Positions 3,249-55,209 of a DNA stretch of 64,000 nucleotides are shown piece by piece; the stretch's first letter is position 1; each line of letters begins with the position of its first letter. A model generated the notes under the pieces. The model searched no databases, was not told the origin of the DNA, and saw only the letters and a program-made list of their open reading frames with translations. Source of the DNA: Stromatinia cepivora (lineage: Eukaryota; Ascomycota; Leotiomycetes; Helotiales; Sclerotiniaceae); the NCBI GenBank assembly GCA_014898415.1, contig RCTD01000014.1, positions 1,240,001 through 1,304,000 on the forward strand. The letters are read 5' to 3'. The position numbers and the translations under genes are program-made.

Positions 3249-5887
3249 ATGTCAAGCACGAAGCATACAGAAGGGAGACGGCTATCTGATCGCGAGAGAT
3301 TACCACTCACAATCAGAGAGGATTTGGCTGCAGGACTCGAAAGACGACCTAGATCAGCGACACAGCCTACCAGACGGATGAAACAAACACATGGAGAGAA
3401 TATTGCTGCTGGAAACTCTATTGAGGTGTTAAAGAAGGCAGCAGTAACACAAAGTAAGAGCAATTACAAGTATTTCTTCCAAAATAGAAGATTGACCACC
3501 TGATTATAGTACCATGGAATCCAAAAGCCACATTGATACATTACACGACATCCCCTCTTACATCTCGCATATCCAGCCCACCCTTGGCCTCGACAATACG
3601 AAGACATCCCAGACCTTTGAAGGACTTGCGTTCTGATACACATGAGGCTATCATATTGGAGGATCTTCTTTTTGTGCTGATGGGTTATGAAGGACAATAC
3701 ATTCAATTCTCGGAGAACTATGATCCAACCTCCGAAAGGGATCGTCTTACTGGTCCTAATTTCACAATACTCCCTGGGCTGGATGTCAGTTTGCAGGATC
3801 TGACTATTAAGGTTTTGAAAATGGCCACCTACTATATGGCGATTGAAGCTTTCCTGGAAGTTCAAGGGAGACGGGAATACGGCTCTGTGAATCATGCTTT
3901 ATGTGCTGCGATCAGGAAACATTTACATGACTATCTCGTCATGATAGTACAACTGGAGACCCAGTTCCTCACGAATGTCGACTTTACTATGAATATTTTA
4001 AATCTGCATACTCTATCAGCAAGTCACATGTTGTTTCAGATATACTCATTTGGACGAGAGATATTGAAACAAAATTCGCTTTTGGAAGATGACTCTGATG
4101 GTGAAATTGATGATGTTGATGATATCCTCGAAGCTTTGCGTTCAGGTGGGGATCTAAGTAAGGGAAGTCTCCCAAAAGAGCGATTGTGTATAGGCGGGGA
4201 TGTTTTACGTCTTCTTACGACGCGGCTGGAAATGATGTCGGGTGATCCTGCAGCCCGGGCTATGCTTACTTCATTATTGAAGGAAGCTAGTCGCCCTTAT
4301 ATGCTGATGCTAAATAAATGGCTACAATATGGCGTTATCGAAGATTTACACGGAGAATTTTTGATTAAAGAGCAAAAGAGCATCAAAAGAGAAAGACTGG
4401 AAGACGACTATACGGACGAATACTGGGACCGCAGGTACACTATCAGGAATGAAGTTCCACCTCAGCTAGAACCTTTCAAGGAAAGAGTTCTGTTAGCAGG
4501 GAAATATCTAAATGTGGTGCGTGAATGTGGAGGGTTAGATTCGAGCAATACTACTCAAAATCTTCCACAATCCTTTTCCTTTGATGATATTCGGTTTTCG
4601 GAGAACATCAACAACGCCTATGCGCATGCGAACGAATCATTACTGAAATTACTACTCACAACTCATCAGTTGCCCGCTAGATTGCGGTCAATGAAGCATT
4701 ATTTCATGCTTGACAGATCACATCTCTTCACCTCTTTTCTAGAGCTCGGAGCATCTGAGTTTCGAAAACCGATCGATAAAATTAATATGAGTAAAGTAGA
4801 AACTCTACTGGATCTTGTTTTACATCAGTCAGGAGCTACTCAAGATGATTTTAAGGAAGATCTTCGGATTGAAATGAACTCGATTAGTCTTGTTGATTCT
4901 TTGAATCGAGTGGTTAGTATCTCTGGGATGGAGCAAGGTGAAACTCTTGATATACCTACTACGCAGCAAAATGAGAGTGAACGGATACCTATTGGGTTTA
5001 CATCACTACAGCTAGATTACTCGGTGCCATTCCCCGTCTCACTAGTTATCAGCCGAAAAACAATCTGGAGGTACCAAGTGTTATTTCGATTTCTACTCTC
5101 GCTACGATATCTAGAGCGACAATTGCTAGGAAGCTGGCAATCTCAAAATAAAGGTGTTGGATGGTCACATAAAACATCGAATAAGGAGATCGAATATTGG
5201 AAACGTCAAGTCTTCATTTTACGGGCTCGAATGCTGGTGTTTGTTCAGCAACTTTTGAATTTCTGTACCTCCGAGGTGATTGAGCCGAATTGGCAAATTT
5301 TGATGGCTAAACTCGAATCAAATGGCTCAGATGGTTCGAAACCGGCTGTCAATACGGTTGATGAGCTAATGCAGCATCATGTCAATTTTTTGGATACTTG
5401 TTTGAAGGAGTGTATGCTTACTAATAGCAAACTTTTGAGGGTATTTTCCATGGCCGAAGAGTCTAGACTAAGCTAACCCTGTGAACAGAGACACTCTAAA
5501 CTTATACAAACATGTACCCACTTCGCCTCATTTACAGGCCGTCTATCCAAGGAGTTAGAGAAGTTAGATCCAGATCTAACAGGATCCAAGCGACCAGCAA
5601 CTATGTGCAAATTGCAGTGGGAACGCTTCCAAACCGAAAAATCTCGATTTACTTCGGACCGTCCGGCTTCTACGGCAGAGGAATCACCACAGCTTGATAA
5701 ATTGCGTGATTTGATGAATAAATTCGAATATAGCTTTGGGAAAAGTCTTCAGGGCTTCATCGATGCATTGAATCATTTTGCGGCTACGGAAACTGTTGTT
5801 TTCTTAGGTCTTTGTGCAAGATTAAGTACTGTAAATCAGGGGACAGAGTTTAGTGGGTTGAGAAATGAAGAAGGTGGGGAGGACTGA
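3249..5887 (+). CDS. GCP2: Gamma-tubulin complex component 2 (Spc97/GCP2 family)
   Basis: This protein pairs with GCP3 in the gamma-tubulin small complex that nucleates microtubules at spindle pole bodies. The exons are 3249-3453, 3510-5440 and 5489-5887, giving 844 residues. The introns are 56 bp (GTAAGA donor) and 48 bp (GTATTT donor, GCTAACC branch). The first 70 residues are basic and low in complexity. The GCP N-terminal half starts near residue 100 with EDLLFVLMGYEGQYIQF, which resembles the GCP2 start of that domain. It includes the GCP2-typical stretches DYTDEYWDRRYTIRNEVPP and LLAGKYLNVVRECGG. The C-terminal half (about 470-830) contains the usual LLDLVLHQSG and FLDTCLKECMLTNSKLLR stretches and ends with a helix carrying HFAATETVVFLGLCARL. 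Length and collinearity match a complete GCP2. The last intron is needed to read the conserved C-terminus: without it the frame stops at 5476. The protein acts at microtubule-organising centres. The gene appears intact and shows no RIP signature. Confidence 0.93.
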
Positions 5888-12977: not shown

Positions 12978-13521
12978 TAGAGAAATGGAAAGTACGAATA
13001 AGTTGAATGATGGGTGACAAGAACACCGTAAGGGTGGTCAGTGTTGTGTTTAAATAATGAAATTGAAATCCAAGTTTCCTTTGAGGTTGGTATCACGTGA
13101 TATTAATTCGCCTTAATCTGCCTAGTCCAACTGAGCGATCTAACTTAATTGGGTCACCGCCTTATTATATTCAGGGTTCAATAACTTTATATTCAATTCT
13201 AAAGTACCCTAATAATAAAATTGTACTGATGTATTGCTTAATTAGGCTTAGGCGTTCATCCGGCCAGTGTGTTCAGTTGGCCTGTGGATTCTTCTACTCA
13301 CCTCTCCCCAAGAAAACATCCCGAAATCAATCCGAATAGTGGCCCTCCTTCCTATTTGATCCCACGAGCAAACACTCATCACTCTCATCACTCTCATCAC
13401 TCTCATCACTTTCATCTTTCCTGGCTCTGTGACTAATTGTTTCCACAATCCCATCCACATTGATGCTTTGAATATATATCCAAATTTGCGCGACGTTGCC
13501 ATCAAACAACAGGCACAAATA
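12978..13521. other. Spacer before the initiator tRNA gene, with a small tandem repeat
   Basis: No gene is seen. At 13373-13412 the 9-bp unit ATCACTCTC is repeated about four times. The rest is ordinary intergenic sequence. Confidence 0.45.
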
Positions 13522-13646
13522 AGCAAGTTGGCGCAGTGGAAGCGCGCCGGGCTCATAACCCGGAGGTCCCCAGATCGGTAAGCACAATCAGACTCCAAGA
13601 TATCAGAATTCAGACTAACAATAATTTCAGAAACTGGGACTTGCTA
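13522..13646 (+). tRNA. Initiator tRNA-Met (CAT) interrupted in the T-loop by a spliceosomal-type intron
   Basis: This tRNA starts translation. The acceptor stem AGCAAGT (13522-13528) pairs perfectly with ACTTGCT (13639-13645); the discriminator A is 13646. The A1:T72 pair is an initiator hallmark. The D arm is GCGC-AGTGGAA-GCGC. The anticodon arm CCGGG-CTCATAA-CCCGG has CAT at 13554-13556 and the three G:C pairs typical of initiators. The T stem CCCAG (13569-13573) pairs with CTGGG (13634-13638). The T-loop is ATCG plus AAA, the initiator-type ATCGAAA, but 53 bp (13578-13630) separate its G57 and A58. There is no canonical intron at position 37/38. A T-run at 13662-13666 could end Pol III transcription. 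Without the insert the cloverleaf is perfect, so the gene looks functional and not decayed, provided the insert is removed. Confidence 0.92.
13578..13630 (+). other. Putative spliceosomal intron inside the tRNA-iMet T-loop
   Basis: The 53-bp insert begins GTAAGC, has the branch box GACTAAC at 13613-13619 and ends TTTCAG, with 11 nt between the presumed branch A (13618) and the last G... that is, AG at 13629-13630 lies about 12 nt downstream. These are the signals of the protein-gene introns in this window (for example GACTAAC at 584-590, before an acceptor at 599). It lies between tRNA positions 57 and 58, outside the 37/38 site cut by the tRNA splicing endonuclease. It also splits the internal B-box promoter. 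Splicing by the spliceosome is inferred from the signals and not shown. Confidence 0.85.
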
Positions 13647-14624
13647 ACCTGCCGACATTTCTTTTTGGCCTTTTCGAGGCATTTCAGTGTTCTTCTTTTG
13701 GCTGGAGGTTGGAGGGGACGTCTGCTACAGGATTAATAACTCAATTGCTGAAGATTCTTTTTTTTGATATCCAAAAGTGGATACGGATAAGGAAAATATG
13801 TTAGTCCCTCGGATAATCTACTTCGGAAGAAGAGCTGGCTTGGAATGTACATACTATCAATGCCCCACACTCAAACCTTCTTTATTTTATCTGCAACTTC
13901 ATCTTTTGCAAGACATCGGTGGATGAAAGAATAGTGAGCAGCTTCTACTATCATGAGAATCCAGCCATCGGACTTTCTGTGGATATCCTTTATTGAAAGG
14001 ACTACAGATATCTAAGAGTTAAGACTTACCATTAGTGTGGTTGAGAAGGGATGGAACAGATCCAGTAACTAAGAACATGAGTTTCATTCAAAGCATGTCA
14101 AAGTCGAAACTTACCCCTAAGCCGAAATTCAAAAAGGCCTCGAGATACTACAAGATGTTGTTCGAGGTGTTGTTCACTGTTTGTTTGAAGGATGCAACTA
14201 AGTCATACCTATGCCACAGGCTGAGTAGCCATGGCTAGCATTTCCATTTTCATTCACCTCCAGTTTGTGACTACAAGTGTAATGTACAAACAAAACACAA
14301 TTTTTTTGATTATGATTTTGTCTTTTTGTGCAATTCCTTTCACTGTCGATGTCTACCTGATATTCCAGTCTATGCTATTCATTTTATGGTTTATTTTATA
14401 TCACACCCTGTCGGGATGACTGTATACGGGGAAGTGAAGCTTATCAACGAACGTATAGAACTCTTTGGTTGTTAATACGTTTTGATTTGCCTAGAGAGCT
14501 AGAATCTATGGAGGGTGAAGAACTATATAATGGTGCATGCCGAGGCACTAGTGCGAGCATTAGTGCGCACGTGATCCTTATCATCCTTACCATGCACGTG
14601 ATTCATATTCCGACAGTAACATAG
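13647..14624. other. Spacer between tRNA-iMet and the AT-rich island
   Basis: No credible gene is present. Two short frames (14035-14238 and 14231-14419) have no recognisable domain. Base composition falls towards AT after about 14280. Confidence 0.35.
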
Positions 14625-14944
14625 GTGGATTCAGGCATACCTTTAACACTAGGTTCTTATTTACATTATAACAAACAGAATCCTGAATTCATTATAACAG
14701 CAAACTATAATATAGAAGGATATATTTATATTCATTTTTCTTTTACAATATCTATAAAAATTGCCGATAAGAATCAACGATTGAAGATATTATTAATTAT
14801 TCCGCCAAATATTAATTTTGTAAATGTTTTTATATATTTTACAAAATCAAACGTTAACGATTCATCACTTTTTGATGGTTTATCCTTTCCCGATATCTTT
14901 GTACTTTATAAAATTAATATAAACGAATCAGGATATATCATCAT
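14625..14944 (+). pseudogene. Upstream half of a decayed unknown gene, split by a copia insertion
   Basis: An open frame in AT-skewed codons encodes stretches such as TISIKIADKNQRLKILLIIPP and SLFDGLSFPDIF and runs without a stop into the LTR at 14945. After the copia element and one copy of the 5-bp target site are removed, the same frame continues at 20410. The product is not recognised; it seems to be a fungal hypothetical protein with a long C-terminal partner (see 20405-21590). The 5' end is uncertain because no good start context is visible. Confidence 0.5.
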
Positions 14945-15092
14945 TGTAGGATTAGAATTTAGGTCACGTGATCACAATGGTGCACAGACCATATTTGGGG
15001 ATAATCTCAATTCTACTTTTATTAGAATTATAGATCCTTAATTCAATCTATATAATCAATAATACTATTATTTCCTGTATCAAAAGTTAATA
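14945..15092 (+). repeat. 5' LTR of the copia element
   Basis: A 148-bp repeat starting TGTAGGATTAGAATTTAGG and matching 20257-20404 with mostly transition differences. The CACGTGATCAC motif seen here has become ATGTGATCAT in the partner LTR. Confidence 0.88.
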
Positions 15093-18000
15093 GATTATAA
15101 AATCCGGTTGTATAATAATGATTAGAAAGCAAAATAAATCGAAAAAGGATTAGTATAACTAGTAGGGATGAAATAGAATGAAAATCAGAATTTTCATATA
15201 GTGTTATCGAAACAAAGTTGAAATACGATAATATAGTTTATAATTTACAACATTACAAGCCAAAGTGGAGAGCAATCTGTATAATGCCGATATAGAATTA
15301 TAATAGAGATGAAAAACAAGTTCGCATAATTACAAGAAAATATATTACAATATAATTTTACGAATTTTTTTATTGTTTTATTTTTATATTTCTTTATTAT
15401 CCTGAATTTATTTGTTGTATATTTTTTAAGATCATTTTAAAAACTTGAAGATTATCTTCGATATTTATCAAACAACAAAAAACCTTTACAATATCGAAAT
15501 CAAGCAATCCTTTGAAACTCGATTAAAATAATTATGAATGATAATTTAGATAAACGAAAATACAATTGAAAGGGAAAGGATGGTTTTATACAATTGATCA
15601 AATATTAAACGAATATATATAGATTGCAGAACTCAATATAATATCTATCTACGAGATCAATGATCATGTATATTACAATATCGAATTGAAATCGGAATAC
15701 TTAAAGGACGAAGTGAATATGTTATTATATATTTATACAACATTCAATAATGATGATGAAACCTTTATCGATGAATATTCAATAGTATATACATTCTAAA
15801 GATACCTTAAATCAAAATATACTAGAATCAATGCAATTATAACCAATACATATATAATGATGATCCAGAACTTCAAATTCCAACCCGATATTCATCTTGA
15901 TATAATCATTATCGAAATCTAGGATAAACTAAAAGAATACAAAAGGAAATTAGGGATTGCAAATAAAAGCTATCGATCAGTATATCAAGATATTATTTTG
16001 TTTTTGATTTTAATATATAATCCTTTAATCGATTATCAAAGAATAATGGATATATTGAATATCCAAATCAATTTTAATATCGATGATAAAATCAAGTATT
16101 TATAAATTAAGGAACTTTGTTTTAAGGATAAATTAAAGCGAATACAAATTGCGAAAAAATCTAAGTACATTTTTCGATATTAAAAATCAGATTTCGAGAT
16201 TCTAAATAATGTTTGTGATTTATATTAAAGAAAAGATCATTATATATAAAACTATTTGTATTTAATACGAACCAACAAATTCCTTTATAATTATCTTTAT
16301 TATTAAAAAAAAAAAAGATCATTGAATCCAAAAAAGGTTTATTTCAATAAAAAAAATCAAATATACTTTATTAATAATATCTTTGAATCAAATTCCGATA
16401 TTGAAGATATAATAAAGGAAGATTACAATTTAACAAAGAAGATTATTAGTAAAACTTTTCCTAGCAAATGATATACTAATATAAATATTTCTTTATATAT
16501 ATTTGATCAATCTTTATTATTCAGATCAATAAAATCTATTATCAAATAAAGGATAAAGATTAATAGGAGAATAATATATTATCGTTATTGAAATTTAATA
16601 AATATAATATATAAAGATAATTCTAAAATGCTATTTTCAAATATATTATATATACTAAAGCTAGAAATAAATTTGTTATCAGGAAAAAGGATCTGCGAAA
16701 CAGAACTGCAAGGGGAATTCAATTTTCATTATATATATTTCAAAAAGGATAATAAGAAAGTTATTCATACTAGAATATAAGATAAAATATATATGGTTTT
16801 ACATATAATCAAAGGATATAAGGATACAATTCTTTATTCGAATATATATCAAAATGATCAGGAAAAAGACTTTTTTTCAAAGATAATCAATAACATTAAA
16901 GATATTAATAACAAATTAATATTCAAGGAGAAAAAGAGATATCTATTATAGTATCGAAGATTCAATTATTTAGATCCAGATAAGATCAAGAATCTATATA
17001 AGATATCCAATATAATCAAACTAATAAAGATCCTAATTGAATTAGATATCTGTAAAGTATGTATACTTATCAAAATAACCAATTGTATTCCGAAACAATT
17101 GAATCTGCACAAATCAAAGAGATTCGAATTTATACATTTCGATATTGTAAAATCATTCCCAAAATCGATTTGAGGGAATCATTATTTTATATTGATCATT
17201 GATAATTATATAAAAGTAAATTGGATTATATCATTTAAACAAAAAAACGATATAATTCAAATATTGAAAACTTAGAAAAAAAAGATGGAATTAATTACTG
17301 AAGAAAAGATCATTGCAGCCAGGATTGACAATATACCAGAACTTTTATAAACTATTCATAAATAATTATTAGATATATAATCTGAAGTTATAATAATTGT
17401 TTTCTTATATCAAAACAAATCTGCAAAATAGAATATAAGGATTACAAAAGCAAATATAAAAATAATATTAAAAAAAACTGGATTATTATTAAAATTTTGG
17501 AATGAAATTATAAAATACAATATTTATATCAAGAATTATGTTGGTATTGGTTTTGGTATGGATGGGGTGGGTCGGTTTTTTATAAAAGTTTTTATAGATA
17601 TAATATTAAATATAGAGATATATAAAATCTGGGGGAACAAATATTATGCTTATATCAATCCTAAGATTATTTTGAAAAGATAAAGATACGATAAGTTACG
17701 GGATATTTCAAAAATTAATATATTTTTAGGATATTTAAAAGTTATGAACAAATATATGAAAATATATTTTCCAGAATTAGATTATATATTTCGATTAAAT
17801 AGAATAATTATAAATGAATTTCATCGAAAAGGAGATTTGAATCTTAAATTAAGAAATTGTGAATTAAATTTATAAGGAATAAAGAATATAAAATTAGATC
17901 GAAGATTTCGTGGTAGATCGGTAGCAAACAAAGTATCTTTTCCATTTTCAATACCAAATGCGATATTTGTATCACCTTTGTTCCAAATATTCTCTCCAAT

Positions 18001-20256
18001 AGATATTATACCGAGTTCAATGATTGTATTAAGTATCCTAATTGTCGAATTGAAATCAAATAAATTAAATATATTAATATCAATATATGATAAAGATAAA
18101 AATGGTAATATTCAGAAAACAAATCAAGAATCTTTTTCCAAGGATACTTTAGATATCGAATCCATCATTCTAAAGGTTCCAATTCAAGAATCAACTTTTA
18201 CAAATCTTGAATCTATATTAGAAGCAAAATTTAAGATCGTTTTAAATTTTGCTGATAAATCTATTTCAATAAAATCAGAAAGTAAAGTAAATCCATAATC
18301 ATCTGAAATCGAACAAAAGGATACAATAGACTTTGAAAATGAACCTTTAAGATATCTAATATGAAAACAGAAAAGAGATATAGAATAAGATTCTGAAAAA
18401 GAATAGGAAAATAAGATTATAAAGATATTGATTATAATATCTATATAGGCCAAAATTCAAAAAAGTATAAAACATATTATAATTACAATCCCAATTATTT
18501 ATAAAATGAATTTTTATATTAAAGATAAAATTATTTCAAATTTTATAATTTCGTTAATAGATACAAATAATATAAAAAGTATAATATATCCAGCCAAAGA
18601 AATTCTGGAAATTAAAATATCAAGAATTTATAAGGAAGCAATATCAGATCGAAAATATTCTGAAAAATAGAAGGAAATTATCCAAAAAGAAATTATATTT
18701 TTAATTCAAAATGATATTTGGAAAGAATATATATTCTTTAAAGAAAATAATCTGGTTTCGATGAAATAAGTATTTACAATCAAGATTAAAAATAACAAAG
18801 TAGAACAATTCAAGATAAGATTAATAACTCGAAAATTCAATCAGGTATTAAGAAAAAATTATAACGAAATATTTGTACCAATAATGAAGCTAAATATATT
18901 TAGATTATTCCTAATTATTATTACAAAAGAAAATTTGGAATACTTATATTTCGATATCAAAAACGCTTTTATTGAATTATATTTGAAAAAAGAAATCTAC
19001 CTCGAATTATTCCAAAATATCAAAATCGAAAAGGGATATATACTATAAACCCTACGAAATCTATATAATTTGAAACAAACTAAAAGAGATTGGAATTTAT
19101 TATTGAAGAAAGAGTTTTTAGATATAGACTTTATATAAAGTTTGATAGATCTATATCTGTATATATTCAAAGATTGTAATATAATATTATTGATATATAT
19201 CGACGATATCGTTATTGTATTATATATATTATTGCAGATTATTTGATTCGATGAAAAGCTATCAGTTTGTTTTAATACCAAAAATCTAGAAGAAATTAAT
19301 AAGATCCTAGATATTAAAATTATTCGTAATAGAAAAATGTATATATTAATTATAAATCAAAAAGAATATCTTGATATTATATTAATCAAATATAATATTA
19401 TATATAAATAATACCAAATTAAGAAACTATCAATAATAAACTATACCTATCTTCAGCTAGCAATCAATAACAATGAACTGATAGATATAAACGAATATCA
19501 ATAACGAATAGGAAATGTAATTCATTCAATAATATATACTCAATCAAATATAATGTTTTCAATTGAAAGATTTTCACAATTTATAACAAAACCAGCAAAA
19601 TATTATATTATAGCTTTAAAGAATCTGATACGATATTTATAATCAATAATCAAACAGAAATTATAATTCGGATTAAAGGGAATATAATTTGATATCTACA
19701 AAGAATATAATATATTTGACAATATAATAAAGGTATATATAGATATAAATTAAATTAATAATAAATATAATCAGAAAAGTATTTCAAAAGGAATTGTAAT
19801 ATTCTATAAAAGCTCTATATCATAGACTAACAAAAAACAAATATTTATAACTACTTTTAATACAGAATCAAAATATATTATAATAATAATATTCATCAAA
19901 CAAAGAAAATGGATTATATAAATATTCAAAGATCTATTCAAATCAAATTATATTGGAAAAAACGGAGATACAATTCAAATATTTAATAATAATTAAAACG
20001 CTTTAGTTTTAATCAAGAATTTATATTTGTATGAACAATCCAAATATATAGATATCAATTATCATTTTATTAAGGATTTAATAGAAAAGGAAAAAATCGT
20101 TATTAGTTATATCAATATATATAATATAATTGTCAACAAAATAACGAAGTTTTGTACAAAGATTGCTTTCGAAAAATTCAAGAAAATATTAGGATTAGTA
20201 ATTTAAAAGGATCGAATAGGATATCCTCAATAAGGAAGTATTGGAAATGAAATCAT

Positions 20257-20404
20257 TATAGGATTAGAATTTAGATTATGTGATCATAATAGTATACAAA
20301 CTATATTTAGGGATAACTTTAATTCTACTCCTATTAGAATTATAAATCCTTAATTCAACCTATATAGTCAACAATACTACTACTTCCTGCATTAAAAGTT
20401 AACA
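20257..20404 (+). repeat. 3' LTR of the copia element
   Basis: A 148-bp partner of the 5' LTR. It starts TATAGGATTAG (TG decayed to TA) and ends AACA, and is followed by the ATCAT duplication. Confidence 0.88.
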
Positions 20405-21590
20405 ATCATTGTATTATTCAATCTTATTACAAAAGGATTCGTTATTATAAAGGAGATTTCTGCGATCATTAAGCCCAGCAACGATATTTCAAACCAATTG
20501 ATTCGTAACCTCGAATCTTTATCTAATATATTTATTTTTAATATATACATCAAACCGAATGATTATATATAGAAAGATCTAAAAGAACTTTACAAGCGTT
20601 TAAACAATACTGATATCGCCATATACAAAACTAATATAAAGAAAATATATATTCAATAAAGAATTATATTAATGAAATAGAGTAGATTTAAGTATTAGGA
20701 TCAACAAGATCAACAACCGCCACCGTATATCGATAATCCTATTCATCCAATACCAGAAGTGCAGGTTCCTTGGTTATCACAGATCGCTCTTTAAGAGGAG
20801 TGTGGACCACTCAATGCAATCGAAGGGAATCGAACTCCAGTTCAAGCGGATGGTGCACCGATATCGCATGGCCATTTTTCTTACAGCGATATAGAGCTGT
20901 CGGACAGCGAAATAAACTTGGACGATTTCGAATGGGATTCACGGTCTGTCGATATGGATTTTGAGATGGGCTCGGATGAGGAACTTCTTGCTAATTTGCA
21001 ATTACAAGATTTAAATCAGAAATCGAAAGACGATTTGATAATTTCAAAGATACTTGAATTGAAATTCGTAAATTGGATAACCAAAGCAACAATGATAAAC
21101 CCAGATATTAATAATTACAAATGTTTAATAATTAAATTATCAATTCTTAATGATTATATTCGTATATTTAATACTCGAATATTTGATACTATTAGGCCTT
21201 AATATTCTGTTATATTATTCTACAACCCATTCGATTCTGATAATACTATCCGGTTATAAAAAGAAAAGAACCGATAATTTATTTCAGATATAACCAAATT
21301 GATTAAATAAGCTAATATATTTTACTCTAATATTAAAATCAATTTGCAATTGATAAATAATTTCGTAAAATTAAACGACATTATTCGCAATTTTGCTCTA
21401 CATTTCGGATATAACAAAACCAAGTATATCCATCAAAGAAATGTTTGTATTGTTTGGATATAAATTGAATTTGGCAAATCGAAAAGAAACATTATTGGAG
21501 ATAACAGCAGATCAGTTTCTCGAAAACGGGATGCTTTGGAAACTAATAGCAATATGTCCAAGCAAGCAAGAAATATCAGATGAAAGATGA
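20405..21590 (+). pseudogene. Downstream half of the decayed unknown gene split by copia
   Basis: The frame continues from 14625-14944 after the element is removed. The translation contains KGFVIIKEISAIIKPSN, KDLKELYKRLNNTDIAIYK and DQQDQQPPPYIDNPIHPIPE. An acidic stretch SYSDIELSDSEINLDDFEWD follows, then a Lys/Asn/Ile-rich part to about 21590. The frame is interrupted by several stops (for example in about 20560-20700, near 20794 and at 21200) that are one transition from Trp, Gln or Arg codons. The island 20690-20990 is much less AT-rich than its surroundings and keeps coding-like composition. The family is unrecognised: it could be a host gene or part of an older element. Confidence 0.5.
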
Positions 21591-21599
21591 TATTTTATC

Positions 21600-22578
21600 T
21601 TTATTTTCTAATTATCTTACCTTTTCACCTTACCCGACCAATTGTACTAAGGTATTAAACCTTATTCATTATTATAAATAACCTTTAGTTTAGTCTTTTA
21701 GATCTTATATATATTTATAACCTTTCAAATACGGGTTAGTTGTTACCCACATAACATTCTCGTACTCAACTCCAGCTATTACTCACACTCTGAGCCTCAA
21801 GCATAACATTTGGCCTGTCACTCGAATATTTACCTAGTACCGCCGTCACCCTGCCCTCAATATCATCTACTTTGGCTTCAGCAGAAGACTCAGAACCAGC
21901 GGCCCTATCGATTTACACCTTGCTTCAACATGTATTTAAACATCTCTGCTGTCCTTCGTTCATCTCCATATTATTTCATTTATTTCTCTCTACTCTTATG
22001 TTCGTTTATAAACCATCTCTTTCCAATCATCTTTACTATTACACTTCTCTTCTTTCAAATTGTTTGCCAGTCACTTGTTATCGAAAACCCTCTTCCATTG
22101 ACATTATTTCCGCTCATATCAATACAGTGAAGATTTCAAAAACCTTCTTCAAGCCTACAGGTGAAAGTGACTACACAGCAGATGAAGAATCGGAAAATAC
22201 AAACGATAAGTCAAATACCCCATTTTCGGGCCACCCCCTGTTTTAGACCACCTTAAAAAACTATTTTATTTTAAATAAACTTTTTTATTCAATCTTTAAT
22301 AATTCAATAACTATTTAATCAATCGATCTGAAATTTGAATATATTATTATTTATAATATATCGAATATCTATACTAAAAATGATATTTTTATAATCTTTG
22401 ATGTGATTGTAAATGGGCTAATTATATATCGGGTTAATTCGGAATATGATATTCTCTATATTATATTTCAAAATCGAATAAATAGTTATCTATCTTATAA
22501 AAAAGGTGTAAAAAATATATAAAAGATAATTTCAATTCAAGAGAAAGTATTAGTAGATTAAATATTAGTATAGAAATC
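21600..22578. other. AT-rich spacer, remnants only
   Basis: Short open frames at 21810-22246 have no recognisable domain. The sequence becomes strongly AT-rich after 22250. Nothing else is supported. Confidence 0.35.
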
Positions 22579-22887
22579 TGTCACGGAAAGCCCTGTGATC
22601 CCCTGTATCCTACGAAGGATCAAAGCGTATGCTTTCCAATCGGAATGAAGGATCTTCTAGCCCTTACCAATCTACCAATTGATAAGGTGATCCTGATATA
22701 CTAATAAACAAAGATCTAGCCTAATTAAGGTGTATATCGGCTAGATAACCATTCATTTGTTCTATATATACAGCTCTTGATTCATATAATCAAGGGCAAG
22801 TCATTCAATTCTTTTACTCTACCAATCACGTGTACCACCTATTCCCCGATCCCTGAAAGTGCTCTGTAATCATACTATCCCGTGATA
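22579..22887 (+). mobile_element. Solo LTR (309 bp) with 5-bp target duplication
   Basis: The sequence starts TGTCACGG and ends CCGTGATA, a near-perfect terminal inverted pair typical of LTR ends, with one transition. AAATC lies directly outside on both sides (22574-22578 and 22888-22892). It contains a TATATATA box near 22765. No internal domain or second copy is present in the window, so it is a solo LTR. The superfamily cannot be assigned. Confidence 0.8.
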
Positions 22888-22892
22888 AAATC

Positions 22893-24979
22893 ATTAAGTA
22901 TTAGTTTTATTTATTAACAAATAAAAGAAATAGATAAAAGTCTCTTTAAAGTTAAAAGAAATGATTTTTCATTTGGAAAACGATGGATACAGAATTTTTT
23001 GAAAAGGAATCCTGAAATTAGAACCAAAAAACAATATCGAATCGATTCTATATATATTTCAAGTACTATTGATAAAATTATTAGCAAATAGTTTGAAAAA
23101 TTTAATTTGTCTTTGTTTAAGTATATTAAACCTAAAAACTAATAGAATATAGATGAAACTAATATTATAAAAGATCAGAATTTAAATAGTCTAATAATAG
23201 AAAGTTCAGAATATTGTTTTATTCAAAAAAAAACAATCTAATTCAAGAGTTTGGATATTGTGAGAAAGTTGGGATATCAAGATCTGATGCGTAGCTAGTT
23301 CGTAATCATATGGTCACATGACTCTTCGTAGTTAGTGTTGGAGGTCACGTATTTGAAGGTGATAAACCTTATAATTTGGAAGTAGTTGTTACGAACCTCA
23401 ACTACGAAACTAGGGCTAGCCGAAAGCGGGCCGAATTGTACGCTAGTTTGAAGAGTTTTCACCTATATAGAGGGGAATTCTTCAATACCATTAGAAAGAA
23501 AATAATGAAAAGTTTTTGATTCTAAACCCAAACCTATTGTTATTCGAAATTAACCGATTCTTTGCTGTGATTCTCACAGTAGTGGCTCGAAGACTATAAT
23601 AGAATAAGCAATTATGAAGTTATAATAATAATATAGGGTTGTATATATCAGAATCACAAATGGCAAAGAATCAATTAGTCCTAAAACAGGTATAAAACTT
23701 TTCATTATCCTTTTCTAACTAGAAGAACCTCTTTCTTTTAAGTCCAATAAAGAGCGATATCGAAACGATAACAAACCGTCGATTATATATTAGAGTTTAA
23801 TGAATACAGAGATTTTACAGAGTTTTCTAATCAATCGATAATAGACCGTTGGTTGTATGCTTGTTTTTAACAATGAAGCCGCTTCCTTGTAGAGATTCCT
23901 AGCTTTACTAGCAACATCCTTCCAACAACCGTAACAGTATAAGGGTATTATATTATATACAATTAATAATACTGAATAATATTCGGATTCAAATTCTTAA
24001 TCTTCAATATTGAGAGTATAACTTTCCTATATATCCTTTTCGAATTCTTTCATATATCAATACCTTATTCTTATTTATCGATTTGAATAAAGATTCATCA
24101 TTTCAATTATCTTAATTAATATCATAAAGATTCTTTATTCGAATACTCTTGATATTCAACTAATTAGGTTTCTTTATTTGAATACCCCTGTATCGATGAT
24201 TTCGATTGTAGTACGAATAATATCATATGATCGTAGTACGAATCATATAATTATAGTATTAATAGTATTATATGAATTCGAATATAATATTTGAAGATTC
24301 ATAATGATTTATGAATTTTATATTAAAGAATATAAAGAAAATATGAAATTTCTTTAAATTTAATAAAATATTATTATTTTATTATAAGGAGATTTTTTTT
24401 AAAAATATTAATTCCTTTTTTTAATTAATATTTTTAAGTGTTTGAAATGATATTTATTAAATTACAATAAATAATTTGACAACAAATTTATTTTAAAAAG
24501 AAAAATACTATTATAGATTCATTATTCATTTCTAATTAATCGATATAGACACCTTAAATATCTATATTTTATATAATCGATACTCTTTTTAATATCTTCT
24601 TCTTTCCTTTGTAGAATATCATTATATTATCTAAGACCCCTATTACTACCGTGATAGATTAGAAGCTAGAATAAAATATATTCTGATAGAGTAGAACCGC
24701 GCTAAGCTTAATACGGTTCTAGCTCTAGAAGATATATTTAACAAAGTATCAAATTTTATATATTTTATAAAACAAGACGGGAATTGAGATGTTGATATGT
24801 TATTATAATTTGCTTTAATTTTCGATTATTATTTTGGTCAATGTTTGATGGATGACTAATCAAGTCTCAGCACATTAACGGCTGAAAAGAGTCGCGCTTT
24901 GCCTAAATTAGACTAGTCCCTCTGACGCGCATCAAGTCCCGGGCTGCATAAAATTCTGGGTCTTAAAATCGACCTGACA
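22893..24979. repeat. AT-rich island with degraded repeat debris
   Basis: No open frames of note. A less AT-rich patch at about 23275-23600, with ACGAACCTCAACTACG and CACAGTAGTGGCTCGAAG, looks like an LTR or leader fragment of another element, but no partner repeat was found. Imperfect copies of a GATAA-ACCGT-GATTAT word occur near 23770 and 23840. A perfect 7-bp hairpin (AGAACCG/CGGTTCT) lies near 24690-24720. Confidence 0.5.
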
Positions 24980-27174
24980 ATGTCCAACACAATGTCCACA
25001 AACACCAATATGGATAGTAAAGAGGATGTTAATGGCGGCGCTGGAAAGCATCTTTTATCGAATCTACCTCTTGAGATATGGACCAACGTTGGGGAGCAGG
25101 TATTTCTTCCGTCAAAACGCTTTTCCTTCTCCGCCTGTGTACACTGATTAACCGCAATTATTAGATGCGCACTTCACAACTGTTCAAATCGCTAGGAGCT
25201 CTTGCCCAGACCTGTAAAGTCTTTTCAGATGTCTTCATGCCAATACTTTATTCTCGAAGAATCATCTACGTCGATAAACCCTGGCAATCAAAACTCCCTA
25301 TGGTTAACAATTACAGCATCCTTCCAAGTACTCTTATCCATACGAAGGACTTGGAATTTCACTTAATCGAAGACAGCGTGATCGGAGATGGTGTGACCGA
25401 CTATGAAGAATTCGATGAATTTGTTGCAAAAGTCTTGAACAAGACACCAAATCTTCGATCTTTTCGGTAGGTCACGAAATCTCGACATCTCTGACTACGT
25501 TTACAGCATTCCAACTTTTCCCCACAGCATTTCCTAACAACGTTGGAGAATTCAGACCATATGCGATTGCTCTGTGAAGTCTCACAGGCATGTCTCGACA
25601 TGCAAATGATCCAACAAGGATCAAATATCAACATTTGTAAACAAATCTATATTGCGTTCTCTTGCTTGTGCATTCATGTCGTGGTATATACCCCTTTGTG
25701 CATCGACCATATACTGACAAATGCAATTCAGATGGTCTGATCAGAGTATACCCGGTAACAGCCTCCGAACTCTCGCTTTGCAAGAATTGAGTAATATGGA
25801 CAAGTTGAGAAAAAATCCAAGGCTTAAACATCTATGGATTGAATTCTCTACAGATCTTCCCGAAGAGAAACTTGTCGACGCCAATTGCTGGTGTTCTCTG
25901 GAGGGATTTTGCAATTTGACATCTCTTGATCTTTACAACTTTTATGGTAATAATTCTCACATAACAGATGAACTTGCTCAATGCCTGGTCAATTGCCCAA
26001 ACCTAAAATCCTTAGGGATAGGCCTAGGGTCTGATGTTGATTGGGCGCTGGTTTGTAGTCCGGTCGTCAAAGATGAAAACGACAAATTTCTGGAACAACT
26101 GTGCTCGCTCTACGCAGATCGTTACAAGGGCCGCCCCTTAGATCTCCATACACTGCGTCTAGGATACGGTGCATCCCCTTATGCACCCAAGATGAAAGAT
26201 AATCGGCAATATCTCGAAAATCTTGTCTGCACAAACGGATTGCGCACCCTGGACTTTTACAATGGTTTATGGGTGGAATACCTTGGGGATGAGCCAAAAG
26301 ATGTCTTACCTATTGATTTTCAGCTTCTAGAAGGGTGCGAATCACTCACTCATCTTTCAATAACCGGATTAGAAGGCGATGTCATAGATTGGCTAAGCGA
26401 TAAAAAACGATTCTCGATTCGGACGATCTCAACTGCGAATTATTCCCATCTCTCGGATGAAATATCCTTTGAATTAGATCTTCCCAATCTTTCAACAATG
26501 GTCACTCATAAATTATACAATCAAGCACCTAGATCCGTGAATGAAGATGAAGGTGTATCCCCTTTTATTCAGTCTTCCGTGCTACACTCTGCTGTTTCGA
26601 AGTATACCATTCTCGATAATCTTCTGAACGGGGGTTCACAGCTTACTAGACTTACGTTATGTATTCATTACGAAACCCAATGGGTATTTAGATTCTTCAT
26701 TAGCTCATTTGGAGATGCTAACATTGGTAGGAACATTTCTGTAGTCAATTGGCAAATCTAAATTCGTTGACTCAGCTTCGGTTGAATGACCTTTTTGGAC
26801 GGGGTTTTTTGCCGAAACATCCTTCGTTATCCTTTAGGAATGCCACAAATAATACGGATATAGCGTATTGTTATGGACAGGAAATATCTAAATTATGCCC
26901 TTCCTTAAGATATGCCATGATTTCTTTCTCTCGCAAATCAGCCGCTGCTTGGGAAATTATACCGGTTGGTGATGGCGTTCGAGGTCGGCGATTTCGAATA
27001 TTGAGCGCTGATGAGTTAAATACATTCGAACTATTCTCCGATGACTTTGATGAATTAGAAAAGCCGGCGGGTCTTCCTCTAGAATCTCAATGGGAAAAAG
27101 CACGGCCATATCCATATCTAAGATGGGTTCCGCATGATGAGAATTCTGATACTAGCTCTGGTGATTCTAGTTGA
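24980..27174 (+). CDS. F-box protein with leucine-rich-type repeats
   Basis: Such proteins usually act as substrate receptors of SCF ubiquitin ligases. The exons are 24980-25099, 25165-25466, 25732-26683 and 26731-27174, giving 605 residues. The F-box core is assembled across the first intron: LSNLPLEIWTNVGEQ, then SLGALAQTCKVFSDVFMPILY (about residues 28-70). The remainder contains irregular Leu-rich segments such as LTSLDLYNFYG, CPNLKSLGIGLG, LHTLRLGYGA, LTHLSITGLEGD and LTRLTLCIHYE, consistent with LRR-like repeats. The last intron is 47 bp with a GCTAAC branch. The second intron is 265 bp, unusually long here, but joining across it restores the frame exactly. The C-terminus is acidic and Ser-rich. 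The substrate is unknown. No RIP-type stops are present although the gene lies between two AT-rich islands. Confidence 0.82.
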
Positions 27175-27876: not shown

Positions 27877-28008
27877 ATGACTGAGCCTCCCAAGGTTCTG
27901 CGAGATCAGAAGGATAAATGTGGTAAGAAATATTATGAAATAGATGAAGAAAAAAGGAGAACAACGTGGCAGGAAGATTATATTACTAGATACGGATGGC
28001 CTTTCTAA
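27877..28008 (+). CDS. Small open frame with a WW-domain-like half
   Basis: A 43-codon frame starts at ATG 27877 and ends TAA 28006-28008. It contains CGKKYYEIDEEKRRTTWQ, which resembles the second and third strands of a WW domain (paired Tyr, charged turn, TTW). The first WW tryptophan is absent, so either an upstream exon is missing or this is a gene fragment. It ends shortly before the AT-rich island. Low confidence. Confidence 0.3.
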   Translation: MTEPPKVLRDQKDKCGKKYYEIDEEKRRTTWQEDYITRYGWPF

Positions 28009-28500
28009 TTTTTAACTATTCATTGTATTGTTTCAGGTTTTCTAGATCTGGGTTTGGATCTAGAAGGATAAATAAGATAGTAAAGAAACTTGTGGATGGT
28101 TTTAGATAACTCACGGTTCATAGATTAGTGTTTAAGGCACATTCGGATCGTTTTTTTAAGATATTTGACCACATTTGTTTCAATATATTAATTAGCTTTA
28201 ATATCACAAATATAATATTTATCGAACACAATATTAAAGCCAATATATATTAAATCAAATAAAAAATATTAAATCTAATATATATTTAACCAAATATTCG
28301 AACTTTTTCTTATATAATAATCAATAATAGTTTTTTAATACTATTGATTAATATATTTGAAAAAATTCGATATTTCAATTAAAAAATCTTCATTTCTATA
28401 CACCCCTGTCATTTTCCCGGGTATATTAGCCTCACCTAAATATACCCAAGTATATATTAGACCCAATATTTCTAATATTTCAAAAAATCGATCCAAACGG
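28009..28500. other. AT-rich flank of the gag-only element
   Basis: The sequence is AT-rich with the repeated word TTAAATCAAATA-like around 28240-28290. No gene is seen. Confidence 0.4.
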
Positions 28501-28650
28501 TGTGACGAACCCAACGAGCGTTTAGAGATCAACCTTAGAATTAAAAGCTACAGAGCTAAAGAGAGTGTGCTACGAAGCTATATATATGATCGGTTCGAAG
28601 CTTAATACTGTACTAGCCCGATCGGACGCGATCATGTGTATCTTATAACA
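28501..28650 (-). repeat. 3' LTR of the gag-only element
   Basis: A 150-bp repeat. On the plus strand it starts TGTGACGAACCC and ends TATAACA. It matches 30007-30156 with mainly transition differences, showing RIP on the other copy. Confidence 0.85.
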
Positions 28651-29069
28651 CTACCCCTCCCTTCTGAAGAGTTCGTCCCGAATTCGCTTTAAATGATCAT
28701 TAATCTTCTTTTGATAAAAATGCCTGATACGTGGATTGCATCACAGCTAACGAATACGCATCCACTGTATCATATGTTTCCTCCAAATGATCTTCAAAAT
28801 ATCGGTTATTGATTATCTCTTCTAGATCCTTATCATCATTATTTTCGAGCTTAGTAATTAATGTAATAACCGGAACAGGCTCTTATCGATTTCGGATTTT
28901 TTGATGTGGATCTAACGGATAGATTTGTATTCAATAAGAAATACTTTTATATTATATATATTTATTTTGTTTATACAAAAGAGTTCTTTCAGAAAAGGAA
29001 AATTTGGGTATTTGTATGTAGAATAGAATCAAGGTACGATCAGGTTTATCTGATTAGATATCAAAAGAA

Positions 29070-29839
29070 TTAAAGGTATCAATGATATTAAGATTGTTAA
29101 TATCCATTGAATCGTAATTCCGAGAATGGGATAGATTCTGCAATATATATAAGGTTCTAGATTTATTAGAGTAGAATAATATAGGGAATCCATTTGTTAT
29201 ACAAATAGCTAATTGTTATATGATCTGAACAAAATCGGAATAGAAATGAGGAAAAGAAAACTGTTGAGAAAAACGATTTCTAAGAGTAATATTGAATCCA
29301 TTGCAAAAGGTTGAGATCTTATTCGAATCGGATCAATTCTGATCTTTGGCTTTGTAAAGGGTCCTTTCGAATTTTGTAATATAGGTATATAGAAAATCGG
29401 TTCCTTGTTTGAAAATGAATAATTTATCTTTAGCTTCTTGAACTTTATTTGGATTATTATAAATATGTATAAATTGATTTAGGATCATTGTATAATCTAA
29501 AAGAATGTTTTGATTAAGAGAAGAAAGCTGAAGTAGTATTATAGTTTGTATATGAGATTCGAGATTGAAATAAATATAGTAAAATTGAGCTGTAACATTG
29601 TCGATCACAGCATCGTCTACTTATAGTTTCGCTTGAATCGAGGGAAGCCAGGTATCGAACTTTTGAGAGCTATTATTGAACTTTTCAGGATCAGGAAAAA
29701 AGGGTTTCGGATGAGAAGGAGTATAAACAATAGAAATGTATTTGAAAATCAAAGAGCGTAGAAACGAGATTTCATTTCGCTGACAAATCACTTCGCTGCG
29801 AAGTTCTGTAATCATGAGATTTATCGAATTGTAATCCAT
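29070..29839 (-). pseudogene. Decayed gag of the LTR element
   Basis: One minus-strand frame from ATG 29839 has an internal TAA near 29619 and a TGA near 29333 but otherwise continues to about 29070. The N-terminus has a coiled-coil start (ELRSEVICQRNEISFLRSL) followed by the capsid-like part. A second short coding-like stretch (DLEEIINNRYFEDHLEET) lies at about 28720-28870 just before the 3' LTR. Confidence 0.65.
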
Positions 29840-30006
29840 AGTTTAGAAATTAAGGGTAAGAAAAAAGACAATACTTTTGAATAGTATTAAGAAGATTTAT
29901 ATGTAGATGAGAGAGTAGAAGCGATATATCTAAATAGAAGCAAGCGGAGTGTATGTGAGTATATATAGATATTATTTTATTTCTTATTTAAAAGAGTTTT
30001 TAATAA

Positions 30007-38357: not shown

Positions 38358-38457
38358 GCCCGTTTGGCTTAGCGGTAAAGCGCATCACTAGTAGTCTTCC
38401 GAGAGGTAAATAAATAGATGAATGATGAGATCCTAGGTTCGATTCCTAGAACGGGCA
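38358..38457 (+). tRNA. tRNA-Thr (AGT) with a canonical 28-nt intron
   Basis: The acceptor stem GCCCGTT (38358-38364) pairs with AACGGGC (38450-38456); the discriminator is A (38457). The anticodon stem CATCA (38383-38387) pairs with TGATG (38423-38427), with the anticodon AGT at 38390-38392. An intron at 38394-38421 follows position 37, the normal site for the tRNA splicing endonuclease. The T arm CTAGG-TTCGATT-CCTAG is intact with a standard B box. It is a useful contrast to the initiator tRNA at 13522. Confidence 0.93.
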
Positions 38458-52100: not shown

Positions 52101-52288
52101 GTCCTTTAGAAATTGACATTTCTCTGCATGAGGTAGGTTCTTGCCTTGCATCTAACCATCCAATCCCGGCATGTACTCTAATGTCTTGAAAAACATATGC
52201 CGGGATTAGATGGATTTTAAGAGTTACATTGCGTGTGGGGGGATACCGATTCCGGATCCCTAGTCCCGAAAAGACATGTGTTCTGGGC
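49124..52288. other. Long intergenic region, no supported gene
   Basis: Short open frames only. The longest is 137 codons at 51776-52189, and one of 92 codons at 49497-49775 begins with ATG and contains HWYSPSDLNPAIVGQYIDRS. None has a domain or splice support. AATGG and AATC simple repeats lie at 51706-51728 and 52010-52040. Confidence 0.35.
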
Positions 52289-52868
52289 CATTATATAACA
52301 TCGGCATTCCGAAATCAATCTAGCTTATTCCAGAATATATTAGATTGCGAAATGAATTAATTGATATCGAAATTGAAAAAAAAATAAAAGTATTTACAAA
52401 TAAATTAAATTTATATAAAAATAATATATTCAATATTTTAATTCATTAATCAATAAATTAATATAAAAAAAGAAAAAATTTATAATTTTATTATTATTTA
52501 TATTTTCAATCTTATTATTATTATTATTCTTAATCTTATTATTATTATTTTTAATTTTATTATTATTATTTTCTTTTTATAAAAATACTTTTTTTATATT
52601 TATTATTTAATTAATATAGAAATCACAATCAAAATTATTATATAAATAAATAAATAAATAATAATAGTAAAGCTAAATTTTTATAAATTTTAAATTCTGA
52701 TTTTATAAATTTTAATTTTTTATAAACTTTAATTTTTTTTAAATTAATATAATAAAAATTATGAAAAATATAAATAAATAAATTATTTAAAATATTGATT
52801 AAAGTAAATTAATTCATTTCGAAATAAACTACAGATTATTGATTTCGGAATATCAATATTATATAATG
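52289..52868. mobile_element. Inverted-repeat element, about 580 bp (MITE-like), very AT-rich
   Basis: The left arm, 52289-52362, contains ATTCCGAAATCAAT and CGAAATGAATTAATT. The same two blocks occur in inverted order at 52807-52868, so the arms are about 62-74 bp and imperfect. The interior is a TTA/ATT-rich tract without coding capacity. No clear target duplication is visible, so the outer ends are approximate. Confidence 0.55.
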
Positions 52869-55007: not shown

Positions 55008-55009
55008 TC

Positions 55010-55190
<181 letters not shown>

Positions 55191-55209
55191 AATAATAATA
55201 ATAAATTAA

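What the first reader, a model, noticed from the sequence alone, without database searches (positions are those of the whole stretch)
13522..13646. Initiator tRNA-Met gene interrupted in its T-loop by a spliceosomal-type intron
Seen directly: a perfect initiator cloverleaf (A1:T72, GGG/CCC in the anticodon stem, T-loop ATCGAAA) forms only if 13578-13630 is removed. That insert starts GTAAGC, contains GACTAAC and ends TTTCAG, exactly the signals of this genome's mRNA introns. Established: eukaryotic nuclear tRNA introns removed by the tRNA splicing endonuclease normally lie after position 37, as in the tRNA-Thr here. mRNA-type introns are known in some fungal U6 and other snRNA genes, so splicing of a Pol III RNA has a precedent. 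I know of no described nuclear tRNA with a spliceosomal intron. Inference: this tRNA depends on the spliceosome, coupling initiation of translation to mRNA splicing.
Basis: partly seen in the sequence, partly recalled or inferred. Interest (0 to 1): 0.97.

Follow-up and report, generated by a model that had tools for sequence, protein, structure and literature searches.

The report
Initiator tRNA genes with mRNA-type introns
In this fungus all four genes found for the initiator tRNA, the tRNA that starts every protein, are interrupted at the same place by a short insert bearing the signals of an mRNA intron, so making any protein would likely depend on the mRNA-splicing machinery cutting a tRNA precursor.

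Summary
Confirmed and extended. Window 13522-13646 is an initiator tRNA-Met gene whose T-loop is split between positions 57 and 58 by a 53-nt insert (GTAAG...GACTAAC...CAG). The genome (55.67 Mb, a relative of Sclerotinia) has four initiator genes by our searches, on four contigs. All four carry an insert (53, 58, 53, 57 nt) at that position. Their exons are identical over 72 nt and the insert interiors have diverged, yet GTAAG, ACTRAC and AG persist in 4 of 4. No uninterrupted initiator was found with three patterns. Forty-five introns of small-GTPase genes from the same genome show the same kind of length, 5' site, branch site and branch-to-AG spacing. A bulge-helix-bulge, the signal for tRNA endonuclease at unusual sites, is absent in 3 of 4. 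T-runs follow all four genes, as after most other tRNA genes examined, which points to Pol III. The only U6 snRNA gene found, another Pol III RNA, also carries a 53-nt GTAAGT...ACTAAC...TAG intron: a precedent in the same genome. Ten searches of open-licence papers listed no spliceosomal intron in a nuclear tRNA. Splicing itself is inferred: no RNA data were available. Verdict: very probably a real spliceosomal intron in an essential tRNA; new variant of a known kind.

The parts
13522..13577 (+). 5' exon of initiator tRNA-Met (positions 1-57: acceptor 5' strand, D arm, anticodon arm with GGG/CCC and CAT, variable loop, T-stem 5' strand, T-loop ATCG)
   Evidence: Sequence; identical in 4 of 4 copies; ARAGORN after removal of the insert
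13578..13630 (+). 53-nt insert, predicted spliceosomal (U2-type) intron at 57/58
   Evidence: GTAAGC start, GACTAAC, CAG end; same kind of signals in 4 of 4 copies with diverged interiors; fits 45 mRNA introns of this genome
13578..13583 (+). 5' splice site GTAAGC
   Evidence: 5' site score 6.4, mRNA introns scoring lower or equal 8 of 45
13613..13619 (+). Branch-site sequence GACTAAC, predicted branch A at 13618, 13 nt from the end of the intron (A to G inclusive)
13628..13630 (+). 3' splice site CAG
13631..13646 (+). 3' exon (T-loop AAA from A58, T-stem 3' strand, acceptor 3' strand, discriminator A)
   Evidence: Identical in 4 of 4 copies
13662..13666 (+). T5 run, predicted Pol III terminator, 15 nt after the gene
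   Evidence: first T4+ run at 11-15 nt in 4 of 4 initiator genes; T5+ within 40 nt in 40 of 58 other tRNA genes against 7 of 58 in control stretches
13473..13478 (+). TATATA at -49, upstream promoter-like element
   Evidence: TATA[AT] at -65..-35 in 23 of 58 other tRNA genes against 6 and 5 of 58 in two control stretches; in 2 of 4 initiator genes

Best explanation
The 53-nt insert is predicted to be a U2-type spliceosomal intron lying between G57 and A58 of the initiator tRNA, and since all four initiator genes found in this genome carry such an insert, the spliceosome likely has to cut every initiator tRNA precursor before it can fold. Steps. (1) Shown: the insert, its position, its signals and its presence in 4 of 4 copies. 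(2) Inferred from the T-runs and upstream TATA-like elements: Pol III makes the precursor, although the insert splits the internal B box. (3) Inferred: U1/U2/U6 recognise GTAAG, ACTRAC and AG, release a lariat and join G57 to A58, which restores the initiator T-loop AUCGAAA. (4) Inferred from known enzymology: end trimming, D-loop/T-loop docking and methylation of A58, which in yeast protects initiator tRNA from nuclear decay, come after splicing, so unspliced precursor should be destroyed and the supply of initiator tRNA is tied to the spliceosome.
For: Four of four initiator genes have the insert at the same phosphodiester bond, with exons 72 of 72 identical in all six pairs; insert interiors (without first 6 and last 20 nt) are 61-69% identical after gapped alignment, shuffled means 52-57%. 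Core motifs persist: GTAAG 4 of 4, ACTAAC 3 and ACTGAC 1, AG 4 of 4. mRNA introns of this genome (45 with well-aligned flanks out of 71 called): 49-196 nt, 21 of them 49-59 nt; GTAAG start 11 of 45; CTRAY branch site 38 of 45, A-to-G distance 10-32; tRNA introns 13, 13, 11, 11. No uninterrupted copy: 5'-half pattern, up to 2 mismatches, finds the 4 only; spliced T-arm pattern, up to 3 mismatches, 0; GGGCNCATAACCC 6 hits, 4 initiators plus 2 that ARAGORN calls no tRNA. The only U6 gene found has a 53-nt GTAAGT...ACTAAC...TAG intron. T-runs after 4 of 4 genes and no T4 inside gene or intron (31 of 45 mRNA introns also lack T4). BHB not formed in 3 of 4. The unspliced RNA keeps the T-stem in its best fold in 1 of 4 only. 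A58 methylation and decay: PMC11301382, passages read.
Against: No RNA evidence at all: no reads, no lariat, no RT-PCR. The 5' sites are not stronger than usual: mRNA introns scoring lower or equal are 8, 15, 8 and 27 of 45 for C14, C21, C10, C5. C10 and C5 have a CAG three bases before the TAG that must be used; with CAG the branch distance would be 8, below the shortest of 38 measured (10), so TAG is expected, but this is not shown. The mRNA introns were called by an aligner that only allows GT...AG, so those two ends are no independent match, and a few of the 45 may be false calls. The insert splits the B box (score -15.6 against -4.4 intact and 14.9 or more in the 41 of 58 tRNA genes whose box fitted my pattern) and no replacement box stands out from shuffles, so how Pol III reads the gene is open. 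TATA at -49 in only 2 of 4. Presence in relatives could not be tested.
Confidence: 0.92

Rival explanations
1. The insert is a non-canonical tRNA intron cut by the tRNA splicing endonuclease and joined by tRNA ligase, as in archaea, Cyanidioschyzon and nucleomorphs.
For: Such introns are known in the T-arm (56/57, 59/60 in archaea; 3-nt T-arm introns in the Guillardia nucleomorph; PMC4090602 passages). C14 can form 3 of 4 central pairs of a BHB.
Against: C21, C10 and C5 form only 1 of 4 central pairs at the boundaries. What is conserved between the copies is GTAAG, ACTRAC and AG. Fungal endonuclease is known to cut next to the anticodon (recalled); the window's tRNA-Thr and L077 have their intron in the anticodon loop by the Rfam model, others by ARAGORN, which looks only there.
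Confidence: 0.04
2. The four genes are dead or regulatory copies and real initiator tRNA comes from an uninterrupted gene absent from this assembly.
For: The assembly (48 contigs) may have gaps; its completeness is not given.
Against: Four copies on four contigs keep both exons identical over 72 nt while the introns diverged, so the product is under selection or conversion; no other initiator by three patterns.
Confidence: 0.03
3. As in the best explanation, but Pol II transcribes the precursor, so that splicing is ordinary co-transcriptional pre-mRNA splicing and the tRNA is processed out of a longer RNA.
For: The B box is split in all four genes.
Against: A T-run follows within 11-15 nt in 4 of 4 and the genes contain no T4, as expected for Pol III; TATA-like elements lie where other tRNA genes here have them, but only in 2 of 4; the U6 gene shows that a Pol III RNA gene with such an intron exists in this genome.
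Confidence: 0.08
4. Assembly or sequencing artefact.
For: None found.
Against: Four independent loci with different introns of 53-58 nt at one position.
Confidence: 0.005

Closest known systems
mRNA-type intron of U6 snRNA in fungi (S. pombe and others; Tani and Ohshima 1989 and Canzler et al. 2016 seen only in the reference list of PMC5832005)
   Same: A Pol III small RNA interrupted by a GT...AG intron with a branch site, removed by the spliceosome in S. pombe (recalled); such an intron of 53 nt is present in the U6 gene of this same genome.
   Different: The host RNA is a tRNA; the intron splits the T-loop and B box; all four dispersed copies carry it; the product acts in translation, not in splicing.
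Introns of fungal U3 snoRNA genes (PMC5832005, passages read)
   Same: Canonical spliceosomal introns with RCTRAC branch sites in a structured non-coding RNA.
   Different: U3 is a snoRNA. The paper (2017) says U3 and U6 are so far the only small structured RNAs known to be often interrupted by an intron.
Canonical nuclear tRNA introns (tRNA endonuclease, position 37/38)
   Same: An intron in a nuclear tRNA gene; this genome has many, such as tRNA-Thr(AGT) at 38358-38457.
   Different: Other position, other signals, no endonuclease substrate structure in 3 of 4; predicted to use another machine.
Non-canonical (BHB) tRNA introns of archaea, Cyanidioschyzon and nucleomorphs (PMC4090602, passages read)
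   Same: Introns within the T-arm.
   Different: BHB-based; 3-24 nt in the Guillardia nucleomorph cases described in the passage; GT...CTRAC...AG signals are not part of their description there.
[quoted passage not shown]
   Same: An intron in an initiator tRNA gene.
   Different: Self-splicing and bacterial; group I introns are far larger than 53 nt (recalled).

Membership tests
U2-type spliceosomal intron | GT...AG ends with an extended 5' site | tested here: met
   GTAAG[C/A/C/T] and CAG, CAG, TAG, TAG in C14, C21, C10, C5; 5' scores within the range of 45 mRNA introns
U2-type spliceosomal intron | Branch site CTRAY at the usual distance from the AG | tested here: met
   ACTAAC in 3, ACTGAC in 1; A-to-G distance 13, 13, 11, 11 against 10-32 in 38 of 45 mRNA introns
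U2-type spliceosomal intron | Length within the genome's mRNA introns | tested here: met
   53, 58, 53, 57 nt against 49-196 nt, 21 of 45 at 49-59 nt
U2-type spliceosomal intron | Excision through a lariat by the spliceosome | not testable with these tools
   No RNA data
Canonical nuclear tRNA intron (tRNA endonuclease) | Position 37/38 next to the anticodon | tested here: not met
   Insert between T-loop positions 57 and 58
Non-canonical BHB tRNA intron | Bulge-helix-bulge at the exon-intron boundaries | tested here: not met
   Central helix pairs 1 of 4 in three copies, 3 of 4 in C14
Eukaryotic initiator tRNA-Met | A1:U72, three G-C pairs closing the anticodon loop, CAU, A54 and A60 (T-loop AUCGAAA) | tested here: met
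   Sequence of the joined exons; ARAGORN tRNA-Met(CAT) 4 of 4; A54U55C56 as initiator mark: PMC3978253 passage; the other marks are recalled
Pol III tRNA gene | T-run terminator downstream, none inside | tested here: met
   4 of 4
Pol III tRNA gene | Intact internal B box | tested here: not met
   Split by the insert in 4 of 4; score -15.6
U6-type mRNA-type intron in a Pol III RNA | Host RNA is U6 snRNA | tested here: not met
   Host is a tRNA; the resemblance is in mechanism only

The most novel reading that the evidence does not exclude
A whole essential tRNA identity has been handed to the spliceosome: every initiator tRNA in this fungal lineage is a Pol III transcript that must pass through the spliceosome before A58 can be methylated, so spliceosome activity sets the rate of translation initiation; and the intron was donated by the U6 snRNA intron of the same genome through reverse splicing, which would be a direct trace of how spliceosomal introns move. 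For the donation: aligned whole, 0, 0, 0 and 1 of 27 short mRNA introns match C14, C21, C10 and C5 as well as the U6 intron does; outside the core motifs, 2 of 45 mRNA introns are as good as U6 in the 5' region, 0 of 37 in the 10 nt before the branch site, and 4, 0, 1 and 2 of 21 in the middles. The resemblance was noticed before it was tested, is weak, and could also reflect shared Pol III constraints.
Probability: 0.2. Interest if true: 0.96.

Novelty: new variant of a known kind. Interest (0 to 1): 0.92.

Why it matters
Nuclear tRNA introns are taught as the domain of one protein enzyme that cuts beside the anticodon (recalled). Here an essential tRNA would instead need the spliceosome, in every gene copy found. 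If true, the spliceosome can work on a tRNA precursor probably made by Pol III, translation initiation depends on splicing capacity in a direct way, and annotation tools that expect introns at 37/38 lose the initiator tRNA (ARAGORN 0 of 4 here). It also bears on how introns spread: two unrelated Pol III RNAs in one genome, U6 and initiator tRNA, carry such introns. Since the fungus is close to the well-studied Sclerotinia and Botrytis, existing small-RNA libraries could test it soon.

Tried and rejected
tRNA endonuclease substrate: BHB test failed in 3 of 4 copies. Replacement B box in intron or flanks: nothing above the 95% level of shuffles. More tRNAs with a T-loop intron at 57/58: one pattern (GTTCG before the insert) gave 4 hits, none a tRNA after joining; other positions and T-loops were not searched. 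A wider census of tRNA isotypes by a joined query of eight tRNAs found nothing, and the tool says an empty answer shows nothing, so I do not claim that only the initiator has such an intron. The Rfam tRNA search listed 62 tRNAs (63 of 3161 candidates scored); I fetched all 62 in 60 regions. ARAGORN of them; of the other four, three were seen with cmscan and one was not looked at further. None of those seen has an insert in the T-loop, but both programs favour an intact T-arm. Mobile 'introner' origin: the whole 125-nt query hits only the four initiator loci, so it is no abundant repeat by that search. Relatives: the prokaryote genome collection 0; viral contigs 1, an uninterrupted initiator-like tRNA; no fungal genomes were open to me, metagenome scans were capped at 0. 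My early note that U6 is uninterrupted was wrong: Rfam had fitted the end of the intron into the 5' stem. U3: two full-length hits, not examined for introns. 5S: 37 matches listed (47 of 1706 candidates scored), all covering 1-120, 36 over the cut-off.

Full report
OBSERVATION. Window 13522-13646 reads as an initiator tRNA-Met gene split at 13578-13630. Joined exons give a 72-nt RNA that folds to a clean cloverleaf and that ARAGORN calls tRNA-Met(CAT). It has the initiator marks: A1:U72, GGG/CCC around the anticodon loop, T-loop AUCGAAA. Unspliced, neither ARAGORN nor the Rfam tRNA model at its cut-off reports the window gene. Of the four copies, C5 just reaches the Rfam cut-off (29.0 bits) and C10 stays below it (26.4), both with a wrong 3' half; C14 and C21 do not match up to E 0.1.

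ALL COPIES. A search of the window's own genome (55,666,819 bases, 48 contigs) finds four initiator genes: the window (C14), C21, C10 and C5. All four are interrupted after ATCG of the T-loop, by 53, 58, 53 and 57 nt. Exons are 72 of 72 identical in all six pairs. Insert interiors (first 6 and last 20 nt left out) are 61-69% identical after gapped alignment against shuffled means of 52-57%; one of six pairs exceeds the best of 200 shuffles and one ties with it. The 100-nt flanks are 51-68% identical by the same alignment, without a shuffle control; some short stretches just upstream look alike. So the interiors are near saturation, a single gain before the copies spread is likely but not proven, and the core signals have been held: GTAAG in 4 of 4, ACTAAC in 3 and ACTGAC in 1, AG in 4 of 4. 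No uninterrupted initiator: 5'-half pattern with up to 2 mismatches gives those 4 only; the spliced T-arm with up to 3 mismatches gives 0; GGGCNCATAACCC gives 6, of which 2 lie in no tRNA that ARAGORN can see. The assembly may still be incomplete.

COMPARISON WITH mRNA INTRONS. Of 71 introns called, 45 have well-aligned exons on both sides and at most 200 nt. They are 49-196 nt (21 of 45 at 49-59), start GTAAG in 11 of 45, have CTRAY in 38 of 45 with 10-32 nt from branch A to the last G, and end TAG 27, CAG 16, AAG 2. A few may be false calls. The tRNA introns fit: distances 13, 13, 11, 11. In C10 and C5 a CAG stands three bases before the TAG; its distance would be 8, shorter than all 38 measured, so TAG, which gives the right T-loop, is the expected site. 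Their 5' sites are ordinary to somewhat weak (8, 15, 8, 27 of 45 mRNA introns score lower or equal for C14, C21, C10, C5).

U6. The genome has one U6 gene by pattern (up to 3 mismatches) and by Rfam (47 of 5334 candidates scored). Rfam matches it over 1-105, which I first read as uninterrupted (note). The locus shows otherwise: a GCC-UUCG-GGC stem-loop and AUU, then GTAAGTATTTACCGAGCG...AAACTAACAATTTCATAG (53 nt), then UGGUCAAUUUGAAACGAUACAGAGA; Rfam had fitted the end of the intron as the 5' stem. The reading of exon 1 as U6 rests on its stem-loop and on recalled U6 sequences. So a second Pol III RNA of this genome carries an mRNA-type intron of the same size and signals. Introns in U6 of fungi are established; PMC5832005 (passages) states that U3 snoRNA and U6 snRNA are so far the only small structured RNAs known to be often interrupted by an intron. 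The U6 intron is nearer to the initiator introns than most mRNA introns are: whole introns, 0, 0, 0, 1 of 27 as good; outside the core motifs, 5' region 2 of 45, upstream of the branch 0 of 37, middles 4, 0, 1, 2 of 21. This was a test made after noticing the likeness, on five sequences; leave-one-out ranks among the initiator introns themselves vary from 0 to 26 of 45 and 0 to 19 of 37. I treat a common origin as possible, not shown.

POLYMERASE. A T-run of 5-7 begins 11-15 nt after each of the four genes and there is no T4 inside gene or intron; among 58 other tRNA genes 40 have T5+ within 40 nt, against 7 of 58 in control stretches. Absence of T4 in four introns is weak by itself: 31 of 45 mRNA introns lack it too. 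TATA[AT] lies at -65..-35 in 23 of 58 tRNA genes against 6 and 5 of 58 in two controls, and in 2 of 4 initiator genes. These point to Pol III with an upstream element. The internal B box is split, and no substitute stands out from shuffles. That is an open problem of the reading, and leaves Pol II possible.

HOW IT WOULD WORK. Inferred: the spliceosome joins G57 to A58, restoring the T-loop. The best fold of the unspliced RNA keeps the T-stem in 1 of 4 copies, C5. In yeast, m1A58 protects initiator tRNA from nuclear decay through TRAMP and the exosome (PMC11301382, passages). With the intron lying directly before A58, the methylation, T-loop/D-loop docking and end trimming would have to wait for splicing, so unspliced precursor should be removed and spliced tRNA should depend on spliceosome activity. 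None of this was measured.

ALTERNATIVES. Introns of the archaeal kind occur in T-arms of archaea and algal nucleomorphs (PMC4090602, passages) and rest on a BHB; at these boundaries 3 of 4 copies make only 1 of 4 central pairs, C14 makes 3. Canonical introns of this genome lie by the anticodon: by the Rfam model in tRNA-Thr of the window and in L077, by ARAGORN, which looks only there, in many others. A pattern for a T-loop intron in other tRNAs gave 4 hits, none a tRNA.

ORGANISM. A 533-aa reading frame of a phosphoinositide phospholipase C in the window is 94% identical to a protein of Sclerotinia trifoliorum, 87% to Botrytis paeoniae, 82-86% to Sclerotinia borealis, Ciborinia and Monilinia (120 best of 2016 listed). 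It is thus a close relative of Sclerotinia; the species is not known to me. Whether Sclerotinia and Botrytis share the insert could not be tested.

LITERATURE. Ten searches of the open-licence library list no paper whose title or opening abstract describes a spliceosomal intron in a nuclear tRNA. Two lists were cut (20 of 136; 15 of 29); preprints and most subscription journals are not held. I read passages of seven papers, none whole. PMC6315951 reports 192 tRNAs predicted in S. sclerotiorum and small-RNA libraries usable as a test. PMC8450103 describes the search for non-canonical introns for archaeal candidates with BHB models; that such a gene would go unseen is my inference.

VERDICT. Feature real (shown). 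Spliceosomal nature very likely (0.92) but not proven without RNA. New variant of a known kind: a known intron class in a class of RNA where I found none described.

Noticed in passing
L017 (G000:C6:2125355-2125520, - strand; intron 2125442-2125494): The only U6 snRNA gene found carries a 53-nt GTAAGT...ACTAAC...TAG intron between its 5' stem-loop and the UGGUCAAUUUGAAACG segment; the Rfam match hides it by fitting the intron's end as the 5' stem.
   Followed up: yes
window 38358-38457: tRNA-Thr(AGT) with a 28-nt intron at the canonical place next to the anticodon; ARAGORN misnames it His.
   Followed up: partly
L078 (IMGVR_UViG_3300031616_000008) 4029-4101: A viral contig carries an initiator-like tRNA-Met without any insert, with T-loop TTCGAAT instead of ATCGAAA.
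   Followed up: no
window 14001-26000, 28001-30000 and 52001-56000: Strongly AT-rich blocks (GC 0.17-0.33) next to blocks of about 0.4-0.45, as RIP-mutated repeats in filamentous ascomycetes would give (cause not tested).
   Followed up: no
L018-L020 and L033-L035: tRNA-Thr(AGT) genes of what looks like one mature sequence occur both without intron and with inserts of 7, 13 and 28 nt by the anticodon.
   Followed up: no
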